Source: Oscillospiraceae bacterium
GTDB taxonomy: Bacteria > Bacillota > Clostridia > Oscillospirales > UBA929
Direction of reading: 5' to 3'
DNA: 53,166 nucleotides
Assembly (NCBI GenBank): GCA_009780275.1
Contig: WRAI01000017.1
Span: forward strand, 1 to 53,166
The notes under the pieces are model-generated. The model was not told where the DNA came from, made no database searches, and was given only the letters and a program-made list of their open reading frames with translations. The position numbers and the translations under genes are program-made. Shown here piece after piece: positions 20,555 through 28,759 of the stretch. How positions within the stretch are numbered: position 1 is the first letter of the stretch; each line of letters opens with the position of its first letter.

Positions 20555-20902
20555 CTAGAAGAGTAATTGACCATCGTCATTGAGTTCGTCCGTATCTTGA
20601 ATTAAATCAGAGTCATCAGCGTTATACTTAAAATTTGTGTATTGGCTATAATCGAAATCAACAGGCAATATTTTTTTTGCAAATCTATATATTTCGGTAT
20701 TGTTTCCATGTGCACGCCATCTCTGATTGAGCTGACAATTAGTGTTTATTTTTTCTATCAGTTGTATGAATTGCTCAGCAGTATATAATTCTAGATATGG
20801 CTCTATTAAATTTTCAAAGCACTTGTCTGCGCCATCGTATGATTGACGATTTCCAAACAAGTTAATGTAATATGTAATGAATAATGAAATGTCTTTCCCC
20901 AA
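20555..20902 (-). CDS. Probable C-terminal part of the HEPN protein, in the -1 frame
   Basis: This is an open frame of 115 codons from a TTG at 20902 that has no ribosome binding site. In the same frame it is open back to the slippery A-AAA-AAG at 20914-20920, reading AIEFLGKDISLFITYY across the junction. It is therefore better seen as the end of the upstream HEPN gene than as a separate gene. It contains aromatic-rich helices and a strongly acidic tail (DDSDLIQDTDELNDDGQ). No family is recognised. Confidence 0.55.
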   Translation of the reverse strand: MGKDISLFITYYINLFGNRQSYDGADKCFENLIEPYLELYTAEQFIQLIEKINTNCQLNQRWRAHGNNTEIYRFAKKILPVDFDYSQYTNFKYNADDSDLIQDTDELNDDGQLLF

Positions 20903-20907
20903 AAATT

Positions 20908-21885
20908 CTATTGCTTTTTTTCGAGAAATTTAATAGCATTATAGTGTAACTTCTCACTTGGCATTTTATCTAAATGTTCCTCAATACTCTCAGATAAAAA
21001 GTGCGCAACAATATTAAATTTTTCATTACTATTAGCCTTTGCTTGTAACAGTGTAGTGGCAGACTCACTCAACCGACAGTATATCTCTGGGAAAGCGCAT
21101 ATAAACAAACATATGTCATCTATTAGAGCGGGATTGATATTGCTGTATACTGGTTTATTCTCGCCTATATCAGACAATAAATCAGCAGTATATCTCTTCA
21201 TTACTACCGTAAGGCAATGGCTGTTAATTTTTCTATTATTATCACAGTCTTCATTTTCTAGACAAAATGTCATTTTCCATATGGCACTAAAAACCTTTTT
21301 TATCATATTTTGGCTCATGTGCCTTAGATACACCGAGGCCATATATTTCTCAAAATTGGCAAGGTCATTTATGAACACATCTTTATTGCTTGCGATGTCA
21401 GTCAATATTTTGTCAGTAATCGTTCTTATGAAAATTGGTGGTTTCGTAAGAATCCCATCTAACATATTTGAGATACACGAAGCAACCGTATCTCTATTTG
21501 GTGTATAAAGCTCACGGTCATGGTCTAATGCAGGGTGAGCCGCAAGATGCCGTATGCTCCTTAAGTACTCCAAATTTTTATGCGTGACAACATCAAAAAA
21601 ATCATTTGCTCTGCCAATTTTTTCTATCAGTTGACTTTCCCACTCAGCAGACTTAGGATTTCTTTTCTGAAGTTCCTCGATAGCTGATAATATATCAGCT
21701 GCTTGCTTTTCCCCATATACATTTTTTAGCTCGTCCAGTTTGTAAACAATATCTGTAATCACCACCGAATAAAGAACGACAATAGCCGCTCGATAGTTTC
21801 CATTGTAATATGAACTTGCGACCTCCTGAAAATACGTTTTTGTTTTTCCGTGATAGATGTTGTCAGTTTGTGCATTAAAATCCAT
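20908..21885 (-). CDS. HEPN-domain protein, candidate RNase toxin/defence gene (frame-interrupted)
   Basis: This 325-aa zero-frame product starts at ATG 21885 (MDFNAQTDNI). Residues about 25-120 form the helical HEPN-like part (NYRAAIVVLYSVVITDIVYK) and end in RSIRHLAAHP, in which R112-x4-H117 fits the RX4-6H catalytic motif of HEPN ribonucleases. The rest is helical with no recognised domain. The frame stops at 20908, two codons after a A-AAA-AAG heptamer. A -1 slip would fuse it to the next frame, giving about 443 aa. The locus is visibly more AT-rich than its neighbours and lies between two direct repeats beside a recombinase, so it looks like transferred cargo. A defence or abortive-infection role is inference. 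Confidence 0.65.
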   Translation of the reverse strand: MDFNAQTDNIYHGKTKTYFQEVASSYYNGNYRAAIVVLYSVVITDIVYKLDELKNVYGEKQAADILSAIEELQKRNPKSAEWESQLIEKIGRANDFFDVVTHKNLEYLRSIRHLAAHPALDHDRELYTPNRDTVASCISNMLDGILTKPPIFIRTITDKILTDIASNKDVFINDLANFEKYMASVYLRHMSQNMIKKVFSAIWKMTFCLENEDCDNNRKINSHCLTVVMKRYTADLLSDIGENKPVYSNINPALIDDICLFICAFPEIYCRLSESATTLLQAKANSNEKFNIVAHFLSESIEEHLDKMPSEKLHYNAIKFLEKKQ

Positions 21886-22077
21886 ATTTAACCCCTTAAA
21901 TAAGCACCACCGTGTACTCTTGTTTGTCATGCGTTATACGTTAGTATATCACTCCTTACGCCACTACTCAAATAATTATACAATATTTCGTCAATATTCG
22001 CAAGAAAAAATGCTCACCGTTACATATGAAGTGCGGTGGTTTTTCTTTGATAAGGCTACACTAGTCATTAAAACAAA

Positions 22078-22165: not shown

Positions 22166-22182
22166 TGAAACCGTTGCAATCA
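22166..22182. repeat. 17-bp direct repeat, copy B, overlapping the recombinase stop codon
   Basis: This is an exact copy of 20535-20551. The minus-strand TGA of the recombinase gene is the first triplet of the repeat (TGATTGCAACGGTTTCA in that orientation), so the repeat sits at the expected element-end position for a recombinase encoded at the edge of its element. Confidence 0.7.
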
Positions 22183-23658
22183 CAGGATTTTTGAGCCTAA
22201 TGGCGGGGCTTGCTCCTCCAAATCCGAACACTCGATTTCATCGAGCGTGATGGTGCGTGTGCCATCTTTACAGTTGTATAATAGCACAAGTTTATCGTCC
22301 TGTAAATAGACAGAATTAACAAATATCTCAACAATCCGCTTGCGATAAACCGGGTCATCCACATCGCCGTCTTTGAATTGGCTAATCCAATACACAATCT
22401 GCTCTTTGCTCAACGGCGGCTTGGTGATACTCTCTTGCGCGATAGCGATTTCGAGGTCGATTTTCTTGTTTTCCAAATCGTCAAGCCGTTGCTTTGTCGA
22501 GGCGGTGATAATGCCCTGTTGAATGGCATCGAGCATATTGACAATGCTTTTCTCAACCTCTTTGAGCTGTTTTTGAAGGTGAGGAATAACCGTATTTTCC
22601 TTGCCGTACAAGGCTACGATTGACGTTGCCGCTTGCGCTATCATTTTGTCATTCAGCACAAGCTCTTTCGTTTTGGCAACAACAAGCCGCTCTATCCAAT
22701 CCTTGCGAACCGCTTTCTTTTCGCATGACTTTTTATAAATCGCGTTGCCGCATTTGTAGTAGTGATACGCCTTTTTCGTCTTGCTCGTGCCGCTTGTTCC
22801 CACCATGAAAACGCCATCCGTGCCGCAGAATAATTTAGTCGTGAGGATAAATTCATCGGGTGCTTTTGCCGCTGCCGGAGCGTGTTTGTTCTTCGCCATT
22901 CGAGCCTGTACTCTATCGAAAATGTCTTGCGGCACAATGGCGGGCATACCGTCCGGCGTTATGGTATCGCCGTATTTATATTCACCGATATATCGCCGAT
23001 TTTTCAATAAATTATGCAAGCTGCTCTTGTTGGTATATTTGTATTTTGTGTTGGCAAAAACGCCGCGATTGTTCATGTTTTCGCTGATTTCGTTGACGGT
23101 TTGACCGTCTGCGTAGCGTGTAAATATTTCAAGGACAATGGGTGCGGTGAGCGGGTCGATTTCGTAAAATCGCTCGGCATTGACCTTGTAGCCGAACGGT
23201 ATCATGCCGCCGTTTGCTTTGCACTTCAAGGCGTTTTCTTTTTGTCCTCGCTTGACTTTGACGGACAACTCCGCCGAATAATATTCCGCCATGCCCTCCA
23301 AAATTGATTCGAGAATAATGCCCTCCGGGCCTTCGCTGATATTCTCTTTGGCTGATACGACTTTGACATTATTTCGCCGTAAAATGGCACGATATGTTGC
23401 GCTGTCGATACGGTTTCGGGCGAAACGGTCTAACTTCCAAACGAGGACTACCTCGAATTGCTTTTGCGAGCTGTCGGCAATCATGCGTTGAAATTCGGGG
23501 CGATTGTCTGCCGTTGCCGTCAAAGCACGGTCAAGATATGTGCCAACAATGGTGAGATTTTGCCGTTCGGCGTATTCTTTGCATTCGCGAAGCTGCCCCT
23601 CGATGGACTCCTCACGCTGATTGTCGCTTGAATATCGGGCATAAATGACGGCTTTCAT
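22180..23658 (-). CDS. Large serine recombinase
   Basis: This 492-aa site-specific recombinase integrates and excises mobile elements. The resolvase domain has AVIYARYSSDNQREESIEGQ with the nucleophile serine in RYSS, LVWKLDRFARNR and EGMAEYYSAELS. The recombinase domain (about 155-260) has GGMIPFGYKV and LLKNRRYIGEYKYGD. A zinc-ribbon region follows, then a coiled coil (about 365-420). The first ribbon knuckle reads LFCGTDG where most relatives have CGxCG, so one cysteine is missing, while YYKC and SCEKK remain. The C-terminus is close to the 17-bp repeat. It is the best candidate for mobilising this region. Confidence 0.92.
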   Translation of the reverse strand: MKAVIYARYSSDNQREESIEGQLRECKEYAERQNLTIVGTYLDRALTATADNRPEFQRMIADSSQKQFEVVLVWKLDRFARNRIDSATYRAILRRNNVKVVSAKENISEGPEGIILESILEGMAEYYSAELSVKVKRGQKENALKCKANGGMIPFGYKVNAERFYEIDPLTAPIVLEIFTRYADGQTVNEISENMNNRGVFANTKYKYTNKSSLHNLLKNRRYIGEYKYGDTITPDGMPAIVPQDIFDRVQARMAKNKHAPAAAKAPDEFILTTKLFCGTDGVFMVGTSGTSKTKKAYHYYKCGNAIYKKSCEKKAVRKDWIERLVVAKTKELVLNDKMIAQAATSIVALYGKENTVIPHLQKQLKEVEKSIVNMLDAIQQGIITASTKQRLDDLENKKIDLEIAIAQESITKPPLSKEQIVYWISQFKDGDVDDPVYRKRIVEIFVNSVYLQDDKLVLLYNCKDGTRTITLDEIECSDLEEQAPPLGSKIL

Positions 23659-24383
23659 GGCGTGTCCTCCCTCGCAAAATATGACTTTATTTTACCACAT
23701 TCGCGGGGGCGGCGTCAATGTTTTGTGGGATAATTTTCAAAAGGTATCATTTTGATTAAACCCCATTGCAAGGACTGTCCGAAACGGACACCCCATTTGA
23801 CGGGCTAACTTCAAGTTAGGGCGTGAGTGGAATCAAAGTCCGCTCATCAAGCGGCTAAGTCCAACTTAGGCAGCAGGACACCCTATGTAACGAATCGTTC
23901 AATAGGGGTATGACTGTGTGAAACGTACAGTCATACCCCACAAGGGCGCCCCAAAACAGGGCGGCCTTGGTTGAGTGCGGACGATGTGGGACGCACTCAA
24001 AACCAACAGGATAGAGTAACGAAACGTTACTCTATCCTGTTGGTGCGTCGGGGTTTCCAAAGGGGCGGCAAGCGCCCTTTGGCACACGATTTTGCTTGCA
24101 AAGTCTAGTGTGTTATGCCTGCCCTCCGACTGACGGGCAAACTCGCGTGTTGCCGGAAGGCAACAGCGGATTTGAGCGGCAGGAAAACGAGGCGGCGTTT
24201 CGAGCGTGGACGCTGGCTTTTGCCGTAGGCAAAGGGCAGCGGACAGCGAGAAATGACGGCGTGTTTTCATAAGGAGGGTGGGGCATATCGTACCCTGTTG
24301 GTGTTGTGAAATGGTGCAAAATGTGCTTATTCACGGCGTAGGTCGGCGGTTAGTGGTTAGCGGTGGAAATGCTTATTTTGAAC
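23659..24383. other. Non-coding region packed with hairpins
   Basis: I see no credible gene in these 725 bp. The visible inverted repeats are TGTCCG-AAA-CGGACA (23776-23790), CTAACTT-C-AAGTTAG (23805-23819), CCCTAT...ATAGGG (23881-23907), a 13-bp GGGGTATGACTGT stem extended by wobble pairs to an AAA loop (23905-23939), and TTGAGTGCG...CGCACTCAA (23971-24000). They continue with a perfect 20-bp stem with an AAA loop (24002-24044), CCAAAGGG...CCCTTTGG (24057-24082) and GTTGCC-GGAA-GGCAAC (24149-24164). Three of them share a loop of the form G-AAA-C. The open frames seen here simply read through the hairpins. It could be a structured RNA, an oriT or a recombination-accessory region. Confidence 0.75.
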
Positions 24384-26680: not shown

Positions 26681-27538
26681 ATGTCTGCCCAGTATAACAT
26701 ACCCCGCAATCACCCACTGCGCCTGCTCCCGATGGTTTATATCCTGCCGTCGGAAATGCTCGTGCAATACCCGACACTTCTCAAATTCCCGCGAGGGCTA
26801 GGCGGCATACAAGCAAGCGAGGAACACCTTGCTACCCTCGAAAGCGATGCTTTTCTCGATGAAGTGATGAGGGCAACAGCACGGTTAGTTTTCCCGCATT
26901 TCGGCTTGAAAGGTTGGATTGAGCAGTACAGCGGATATTCCCCGGCATGGATATTCGCGTATTACATTCAAGTTTGGGCGAAAGCATTTGAGGACGAAAC
27001 GGATTTCGGCTTGCAATATTTATTTAACTTGCGCCGACATGAAGAAGTGCCGTTTTTCAATCCCGAATATGTCAATGAAGCCATGCTCCGTGCTGTCAAG
27101 CGTGTGATTGCCGAGCAAAACTGGCAGCCAATTTTGGACGTGATGCGTGAAATGCCTTGTCATGAAGATTTCGAGCCGTGGAGAAACAGCCAACCCCGTA
27201 TTGATTTTCTCCGCAAATGGTATCACTCGCGGGCAAGCACCAAAATGATTTCACTTGAAGCAAGCATGGCAAACGCCAACCACGCAATCCACGACATGGC
27301 GGCAAGCGATGCCGACTTTGTCGAAAATGTCCTTTCCGAGGACTACATCGAGCAATTCAAGGCGCGATTATCGCCCAAAGATTCACGCATTTTGGAACTG
27401 CGAATGGCAGGCTACACCGCCGAGAAAATCGCACGAGAATTAGGTTATAAAAACCACAGCGGCGTATTGAAGCGTATACGCACCATCGCCGCCGCCTACG
27501 AAAAATACGAGGACGAAAACACAGAAATCATTACATAG
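26681..27538 (+). CDS. Sigma-70 region-4-like HTH protein of a mobile element
   Basis: This 285-aa protein has a C-terminus (about 230-275) reading LSPKDSRILELRMAGYTAEK and then IARELGYKNHSGVLKRI, a helix-turn-helix of sigma region 4 type. The N-terminal two-thirds is helical and not recognised. Proteins of this size are often found directly before MobV relaxases in clostridial elements and are presumed regulators of mobilisation. It has a strong consensus promoter and its own terminator, followed immediately by the relaxase. Whether it binds RNA polymerase is unknown. Confidence 0.6.
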   Translation: MSAQYNIPRNHPLRLLPMVYILPSEMLVQYPTLLKFPRGLGGIQASEEHLATLESDAFLDEVMRATARLVFPHFGLKGWIEQYSGYSPAWIFAYYIQVWAKAFEDETDFGLQYLFNLRRHEEVPFFNPEYVNEAMLRAVKRVIAEQNWQPILDVMREMPCHEDFEPWRNSQPRIDFLRKWYHSRASTKMISLEASMANANHAIHDMAASDADFVENVLSEDYIEQFKARLSPKDSRILELRMAGYTAEKIARELGYKNHSGVLKRIRTIAAAYEKYEDENTEIIT

Positions 27539-27554: not shown

Positions 27555-27587
27555 GCCGCCACTTTGAAAGGAAGTGGCGGCTTTTTG
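27555..27587 (+). terminator. Intrinsic terminator after the sigma-like gene
   Basis: GCCGCCACTT (27555-27564) pairs with AAGTGGCGGC (27572-27581), followed by TTTTTG. A GTG within its 3' arm (27574) would extend the relaxase frame upstream, but is not a plausible start. Confidence 0.9.
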
Positions 27588-27621
27588 TTGTGCCAAAATC
27601 AAAAATCAGGAGGTTTTCACC

Positions 27622-28578
27622 ATTCCACAGTACGCAATCATGAGATTTAGCAAGCAAAAGGGCGGCGCGGGCGCGCTCGAAGCCCATCACGAACGCAAAA
27701 AAGAAAAGTACGCCAGCAACCCCGACATTGACCCCAGCCGCAAGCACCGCAATTTCCACATCATCGAACCGACAACGACCAACAAACGCGAGAGCGACAA
27801 CAGAATTGCCACCGCACAATGTAAAATCCGCAAGGATAGTATCCGCTTTGTGGACACACTCGTCACCGCCAGCCCCGACTTTTTCAAGGGGAAGAAACGC
27901 AACGAAATCAAAGAATTTTTCACTACCGCCGTTGACTTTCTCGCACAGAAAATCGGCAAGGAAAACATTTTCGCCGCCATCGTTCACATGGACGAAAAAA
28001 CGCCGCATTTGCATCTTTGCTTTACACCCATCACGCCCGATGGGCGATTATCCGCGAAAGAAATCATTGGCAATCGGACGCAGTTGTCAAAATGGCAAGA
28101 TGATTTTTTTGCACACATGGTGCAGAAATTTCCCGACCTCGAACGCGGCGAACCCGCCAGTATTACTGGGCGGCAACACATCCCGATGCGTGTTTTCAAG
28201 CAAGCTGTCAATCTCGAAAAACAGGCAGCGAAGATTGTCGCCACGCTTGCCGAGATAACGCCGTTTAACGCCGGCAAGAAAAAAGATGAGTTGCTCGGAC
28301 AGCTCCACAAATTCATGCCAAATTGGTAGCAATTCGAGGGGCAAGTCAAGAAATATCGCCGCACGATTGACTTTCTCGCTGAACAAAATGCCGAATTAAA
28401 GCAGGAAGTGAAAGACAGCAAGTTGACTATGACGGAAAAGATGGATTATTTCACGGTAAAACACCATTACGAGCAAGCGAAACAGATTTTGCGACTTATT
28501 CCCGAAGATGTTCGCAAAGAAGCCGCCGACAAAGTATTCCGACCACAGAAATCAAAAACAAAACAATTAGAGCGATAA
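27622..28578 (+). pseudogene. MobV (Pre/MobM) family relaxase, ATT start and internal amber codon
   Basis: This is a mobilisation relaxase. From ATT 27622 the product begins (M)PQYAIMRFSKQKG, and the motif ALEAHHER puts the histidine at residue 22, the position of the nucleophilic His22 of pMV158 MobM. The metal motif HMDEKTPHLHLCF is present. AGGAGG ends 9 nt before the ATT, and no ATG occurs until codon 7 (27640). After 235 codons, TAG (28327-28329) interrupts the frame. It then continues in phase with QFEGQVKKYRRTIDFLAEQN for 82 more codons to TAA at 28576, matching the family C-terminal coiled coil. The catalytic domain is complete, so a truncated enzyme could still nick DNA. It may be decaying or read through. 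Confidence 0.85.
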
Positions 28579-28597
28579 TGGAGGGCATTTTTAATAT

Positions 28598-28759
28598 ATG
28601 ACAGAAACGCACACACCCAAAATTGAATATTCACAAGAGCAAATCGACGCGCTGGCACGATGCTTTTTACCCGCAATTCAAGCATTTTATGAGTGCGAGG
28701 AAAATCAACGCAAGTTCGAGGAATGGAAAGCAAGGCAGGACGAGCAATTAGCGGCGTGA
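28598..28759 (+). CDS. Small mobile-element protein, 53 aa
   Basis: This short frame, MTETHTPKIEYSQEQIDALA and onward, ends in a charged helix (FEEWKARQDEQLAA). It begins 19 bp after the relaxase frame ends and stops before the terminator. GGAGGG lies 12 nt upstream, which is rather far. Small proteins in this place are common after MobV genes. No function is known. Confidence 0.55.
   Translation: MTETHTPKIEYSQEQIDALARCFLPAIQAFYECEENQRKFEEWKARQDEQLAA

What the first reader, a model, noticed from the sequence alone, without database searches (positions are those of the whole stretch)
23776..24164. Cluster of hairpins with common G-AAA-C loops beside the recombinase
Eight inverted repeats lie within 390 bp, including a perfect 20-bp stem (24002-24044). 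Three have the same AAA loop closed by G-C (TGTCCG-AAA-CGGACA, GTG-AAA-CGT, AACG-AAA-CGTT). Two (23881-23907 and 23905-23939) share bases, so they would compete. This looks like a designed structure: a structured RNA, a folded single-strand oriT, or a recombinase accessory site.
Basis: partly seen in the sequence, partly recalled or inferred. Interest (0 to 1): 0.65.

Follow-up and report, generated by a model that had tools for sequence, protein, structure and literature searches.

The report
Folded DNA at a conjugation origin
The hairpin cluster is the left half of a conjugation start site (oriT): the DNA strand exported to a recipient cell can fold into a string of hairpins before the predicted cut and, right after it, into a three-armed shape that evolution has preserved in dozens of gut-bacterial mobile elements.

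Summary
The region 23729-24117 has the highest inverted-repeat coverage of any 389-bp stretch in the window (0.46; best elsewhere 0.21), and 0 of 100 shuffles fold as well.

The finding's coordinates cut through a larger feature, about 23776-24290: the oriT of a MOBV-type integrative mobilizable element. The pMV158/MobM nick sequence TAGTGTG|TTA lies at 24106-24115. The IR1/IR3-type hairpin sits in the right place, and a MobV relaxase gene related to MobM is 3.4 kb downstream.

The module occurs across the bacterial order. Directly after the nick, the transferred strand folds into a three-way junction (24113-24290). A covariance model built without the window finds it starting at exactly the first base after the nick (49 bits, E 4e-12). 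In the relatives, 21 of 40 pairs show compensatory changes (0/500 shuffles). 28 of 31 hits examined abut a MOBV nick sequence. Classical MOBV plasmids (pUB110, pAMalpha1) lack this domain.

The distal array (23776-24000) is lineage-specific in sequence. Some other elements, and pUB110, have unrelated but equally folded DNA there.

Best reading: a folded single-strand oriT whose flanks probably serve second-strand priming or strand protection (function inferred). "Structured RNA" and "recombinase site" are less likely.

The parts
23776..24000 (+). distal (trailing-side) hairpin array: 23776-23790, 23805-23819, 23840-23854, 23855-23869, 23881-23907, 23905-23939, 23942-23970, 23971-24000
   Evidence: z -9.7 for -340..-125 of the nick; no alignable relatives
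24002..24044 (+). stem A, perfect 20-bp hairpin; a 20-27 bp stem in the same place in most relatives, sequence not kept
24057..24082 (+). stem B (CCAAAGGG...CCCTTTGG)
24083..24112 (+). stem C, nick hairpin of MOBV IR1/IR3 geometry, ends at the nick
   Evidence: PMC5863519
24106..24115 (+). predicted nick sequence TAGTGTG|TTA, cut between 24112 and 24113
   Evidence: PMC5090054
24113..24290 (+). leading-region three-way junction: closing stem D (+2..+15 with about +160..+175), arm E 24130-24182, arm F 24183-24268
27574..28329 (+). MobV relaxase gene (catalytic domain complete; in-frame stop after it)
22180..23658 (-). large serine recombinase gene of the element

Best explanation
The hairpin cluster is the trailing half of the oriT of a serine-recombinase, MOBV-type integrative mobilizable element. 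In the donor the MobV relaxase recognises the nick hairpin (stem C) and cuts the + strand between 24112 and 24113. The + strand leaves 5' end first. Its first ~178 nt fold into a conserved three-way junction; the last ~340 nt to leave (array, stems A, B and C) fold into a chain of hairpins that brings stem C back for the relaxase to re-join the ends. Shown here: nick sequence and hairpin, relaxase in cis, conservation and covariation of stems, and that the better-folding strand is the transferred sense. Inferred from precedent: cleavage, export, re-joining and the role of the flanks. The most likely role of the flanks is a single-strand origin or priming platform that lets host RNA polymerase or primase start the second strand in the recipient; strand protection or relaxosome assembly comes next.
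For: Nick sequence identical to the MobM cut 5'-TAGTGTG/TTA-3'. Stem C has the IR1/IR3 geometry with 8 nt to the nick in 30 of 30 modules. MobV relaxase in cis, matching the solved MobM domain over residues 20-211; MobV homologues 1.2-4.4 kb downstream on the same strand in 8 other loci. Module in 48 of 394 genomes of the order. Leading junction: 21 of 40 pairs with double changes, score 0.389 against 0.146 shuffled, 0/500; model built without the window hits 24113-24295 from the first base after the nick, E 4e-12; 28 of 31 model hits abut a MOBV nick. + strand folds better in 29 of 31 modules with DNA parameters. Precedent: pMV158 module = MobM + oriT + two sso's, and ssoU loss lowers transfer (PMC4595007).
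Against: No experiment. mobV has an in-frame stop after its catalytic domain, so this copy may be decaying. oriT lies 3.4 kb from mobV, unlike pMV158. The distal array has no relatives to test by covariation. Known sso motif CS-6 absent and no promoter-like boxes above chance, so the priming role is only inferred.
Confidence: 0.88

Rival explanations
1. A refinement about the flanks: they are a single-strand origin or single-strand promoter. In the recipient RNA polymerase binds the folded ssDNA and makes a primer or an early transcript (sso-like or Frpo-like).
For: Folded strand is the transferred one. pUB110, a MOBV plasmid, has equally folded DNA just upstream of its oriT (z -8.0 and -7.5). 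sso function depends on structure more than sequence (PMC4595007), which fits an array kept in shape but not in sequence. Frpo folds in the leading region of F (PMC9849209).
Against: CS-6 motif absent. No -35/-10 pair above chance. A primer made near the 5' end is useful only after the strand is circularised.
Confidence: 0.45
2. A structured RNA: the + strand is transcribed, and the junction is a cis-regulatory leader or a small RNA.
For: G.U pairs are common and A.C pairs rare in the sense strand. In many relatives an ATG follows stem D, and one annotated hypothetical gene starts there.
Against: The structure begins at the second base after the nick in all modules. The reading frames after the ATG are 19-108 codons with scattered stops, and the ATG is absent in the window, its second copy and several divergent modules. 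No Rfam match. G.T wobbles are also tolerated in ssDNA.
Confidence: 0.1
3. Transcription insulator: hairpins terminate transcription from the recombinase side or from outside so that oriT stays free.
For: In several relatives stem A has an A-tract before and a T-tract after a G+C-rich core, as a two-way terminator would (L059, L031, L011, L002/L136).
Against: In the window stem A and the array stems have no T-run; terminator-like matches are no more than chance. Does not explain the leading junction.
Confidence: 0.15
4. Recombinase accessory or attachment site for the adjacent large serine recombinase.
For: The array lies about 120 bp upstream of the recombinase start.
Against: Among the recombinase relatives checked only L059 and L073 have a nick motif, and the other upstream regions show no related array. 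The same oriT module occurs in elements whose recombinase lies several kb away. Sites of this recombinase class are short dsDNA sites (own knowledge).
Confidence: 0.04

Closest known systems
oriT of pMV158 / pUB110 (MOBV1, relaxase MobM)
   Same: Nick sequence TAGTGTG/TTA, IR1 8 nt before the nick inside a bulged longer hairpin ending at the nick; MobV relaxase; in pUB110 strongly folded DNA just upstream of oriT
   Different: Has a conserved three-way junction from +2 that pUB110, pAMalpha1 and two Enterococcus plasmids lack; extra stems A and B; mobV 3.4 kb away instead of next to oriT
Tn4451-kind integrative mobilizable elements (serine recombinase + MobV)
   Same: Large serine recombinase and MobV relaxase in one element (PMC5704250)
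   Different: Tn4451 oriT could not be fetched, so its structure was not compared; ends of the window's element not determined
Single-strand origins (ssoA/ssoU of rolling-circle plasmids, sso1 of ICEBs1)
   Same: Folded ssDNA next to a MOBV oriT or dso; structure matters more than sequence (PMC4595007)
   Different: No sequence match, no CS-6 motif, priming not shown
Frpo single-stranded promoter of plasmid F
   Same: Folded DNA in the leading region of the transferred strand (PMC9849209)
   Different: Starts at the nick itself; no -35/-10 pair recognisable above chance in the window

Membership tests
MOBV (pMV158-type) oriT | nick sequence 5'-TAGTG(T/C)G/TTA-3' | tested here: met
   24106-24115; PMC5090054
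MOBV (pMV158-type) oriT | IR1 8 nt upstream of the nick within a longer bulged IR3 ending at the nick | tested here: met
   stem C in 30 of 30 modules; PMC5863519
MOBV (pMV158-type) oriT | MOBV relaxase in the same element | tested here: met
   NF041497 MobV 168 bits, PF01076, PDB 4lvi match; C-terminus cut by a stop
MOBV (pMV158-type) oriT | IR2, an alternative hairpin spanning the nick | tested here: inconclusive
   not seen in the minimum-energy folds; alternative folds were not searched systematically
MOBV (pMV158-type) oriT | site- and strand-specific cutting by the relaxase | not testable with these tools
   needs a nicking assay
Integrative mobilizable element with serine recombinase (Tn4451 kind) | serine recombinase, MobV relaxase and oriT together | tested here: met
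Integrative mobilizable element with serine recombinase (Tn4451 kind) | defined ends (attL/attR) and excision | tested here: inconclusive
   no clear direct repeats; no empty site read
Single-strand origin (sso) | stable fold of the single strand | tested here: met
Single-strand origin (sso) | conserved CS-6 motif TAGCG(A/T) (motif from own knowledge) | tested here: not met
   none at -500..+300 of the window's nick
Single-strand origin (sso) | orientation-dependent priming of the second strand | not testable with these tools
   needs ssDNA assay
Frpo single-stranded promoter | -35 and -10 boxes rebuilt by the fold | tested here: inconclusive
   linear scan finds no more than chance; arms of the fold not modelled as promoters
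Known structured RNA (Rfam 15) | match to a family model | tested here: not met
   only a tRNA in the window at gathering cut-offs; permissive hits in the region all far below cut-off

The most novel reading that the evidence does not exclude
In a widespread group of Clostridia mobilizable elements the 5' end of the exported strand is itself a selected nucleic-acid device: a conserved three-way-junction ssDNA domain that begins at the relaxase cut and acts as a priming, promoter or pilot structure in the recipient, paired with a fast-changing hairpin array at the 3' end of the strand.
Probability: 0.45. Interest if true: 0.75.

Novelty: new variant of a known kind. Interest (0 to 1): 0.55.

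Why it matters
How ssDNA delivered by mobilizable elements of Clostridia is turned into duplex and established is poorly known. A covarying structure that starts at the nick gives a precise, testable object: which bases to unpair and re-pair, and on which strand. The covariance model also finds oriT modules of this kind in unannotated genomes (29 of 394 sampled genomes of the order), some in gut elements that carry resistance genes such as aadE.

Tried and rejected
Rfam at gathering and permissive thresholds: nothing relevant.

Blastn of the distal array alone in 391 genomes of the class: only self and one chance-level hit.

Exact pattern ending in TTATGCC in viral contigs: no hits; the variant ending in TTATAC gave 12 loci.

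A second oriT suspected at 42.5 kb from 13-mer matches lies inside coding sequence and is chance.

Gene-leader idea: the ATG after stem D in many relatives opens ORFs of 19-108 codons with scattered stops, so it is not a conserved gene.

Known sso motif CS-6: absent.

Recombinase as organiser: of the roughly 48 recombinase relatives checked only two carry a nick motif, both in the window's orientation.

Element ends: no clear direct repeats; the neighbouring HtrA-like gene has only distant homologues in the family, so no empty site was read.

Full report
OBSERVATION. The 389-bp region folds with z -11.2 (0/100 shuffles). Inverted repeats cover 46% of 23729-24117, the top of the whole window, with 21% the best elsewhere. 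Only two strict GAAAC hairpins exist in the window.

IDENTITY. Blastn of the region finds one part of it, about 24048-24141, in 48 of 394 genomes of the order, in a second contig of the same genome (97%), in gut plasmids and in gut contigs filed as phage. That part holds TAGTGTG|TTATGCC at 24106-24119. The relaxase MobM of pMV158 cuts 5'-TAGTGTG/TTA-3' (PMC5090054). Its oriT has an 18-nt IR1 8 nt before the nick, inside a longer bulged IR3 that ends at the nick (PMC5863519). Stem C (24083-24112) has this geometry in all 30 aligned modules. A MobV relaxase gene lies at 27574-28329 on the same strand. It matches the solved MobM domain over residues 20-211, with the histidine motif present. In 8 related loci a MobV homologue lies 1.2-4.4 kb downstream on the same strand, 72.5% identical in termite-gut locus L059. 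The element also has a large serine recombinase (22180-23658). It is therefore an integrative mobilizable element of the Tn4451 kind (PMC5704250), and the finding is its oriT.

ARCHITECTURE. Thirty-eight distinct modules were collected. In the strand that would be transferred, inverted repeats cover 35-57% of positions -150 to -25 against 8% in controls. Separate folds give nearly the same layout in most modules. Stem A is at about -115..-65 (20-27 bp), stem B at -57..-31, and the nick hairpin C at -31..-1. After the nick, a closing stem D runs from +2 to about +144 (+175 in the window) and encloses arm E (+18..+71) and arm F (+72..+124; to +156 in the window). D, E and F form a three-way junction whose closing stem begins at the second base after the cut.

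COVARIATION. An alignment of 17 leading regions without the window gave 40 consensus pairs, 21 with compensatory double changes and 96.4% of cells paired. The covariation score was 0.389 against 0.146 in shuffles (0/500 reached it) and at most 0.131 for slid partners. The covariance model from it, R1, hits the window at 24113-24295 with 49.2 bits, E 4.2e-12, starting at exactly the first base after the predicted cut. It also hits the second copy in the genome (51.4 bits) and several divergent modules left out of the model. In 394 genomes of the order it finds 40 places in 29 genomes. Of 31 loci examined, 28 have TAGTG[TC]G|TTA directly before the match, although these bases were not in the model. 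At least five of those loci also contributed to the model and others are near-identical to each other, so the count is not of independent events. The + strand folds better than its complement in 29 of 31 modules with DNA parameters and 27 of 31 with RNA parameters. Stems A and B show fewer but clear double changes. R1 finds nothing in pUB110, pAMalpha1 and two Enterococcus MOBV plasmids, so the junction is not a general part of MOBV oriTs.

THE DISTAL ARRAY. 23776-24000 has no alignable relative. It is partly built of diverged repeats, and two of its hairpins (23805-23819 and 23855-23869) differ by a compensatory C-G to G-C swap. The equivalent stretch (-340..-125) folds strongly in some other elements with unrelated sequence (L149 z -8.9, L018 -8.0, L162 -6.2, L017 -6.1; window -9.7). 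It does not in most others, many of which diverge from each other within 100-150 bp of the nick and so probably end there. In pUB110 the DNA just upstream of the MOBV oriT folds equally strongly (z -8.0; -7.5). From my own knowledge this is where pUB110's single-strand origin (ssoU type) lies; the passages I read give its length as 340 nt but not its position relative to oriT. [quoted passage not shown]

MECHANISM. Cutting at 24112|24113, export of the + strand with 24113 leading, and re-joining at stem C follow from MOBV biology and are inferred. The leading junction would be the first DNA to enter the recipient and the array the last. The role I think most likely for one or both is a platform for starting the second strand or an early transcript (about 0.45). 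Strand protection and relaxosome assembly remain open. Known sso motifs and promoter boxes were not found above chance, so I do not file it as a known sso or Frpo promoter. A structured RNA is less likely because the boundary is the nick, no gene follows consistently and no RNA family matches. In several relatives stem A looks like a two-way terminator, but not in the window.

LIMITS. No experiment exists. mobV carries an in-frame stop after its catalytic domain, so this copy may be decaying. The distal array's conservation is untested for lack of relatives. Element ends were not determined. Most folds used RNA energy parameters; the DNA-parameter checks agree. A literature search found no earlier description of the junction, but only open-licence papers were searched.

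Noticed in passing
window 24311-24380: A dispersed ~50-70 bp repeat (about TTYACGGCGTRGGTCGGCGGTTAGYCGTTAGCGGTGGAAATGCTTATT) with about ten further copies in the same genome, several behind a terminator-like hairpin and next to what look like gene ends.
   Followed up: partly
window 20555-21930 (-): PD-T7-3 anti-phage defence gene, split into two consecutive ORFs; probable cargo of the element, interrupted here.
   Followed up: no
window 28327-28600 (+): In-frame stop after the MobV catalytic domain; the same frame stays open for about 90 more codons.
   Followed up: partly
window 23998-24013 with 24291-24306: The left arm of stem A could instead pair with DNA just beyond stem D (14 of 16, I3), a possible alternative closure of the whole module.
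   Followed up: no
L190 and L193 (genomes of the same family), around position 1500: The leading junction is kept but the DNA upstream of the nick is unrelated and has no oriT, as if exchanged at or near the nick.
   Followed up: no
window 26681-27538 (+): 285-aa protein of unknown kind directly before mobV, with a weak sigma-70-like C-terminal match below cut-off.
   Followed up: no
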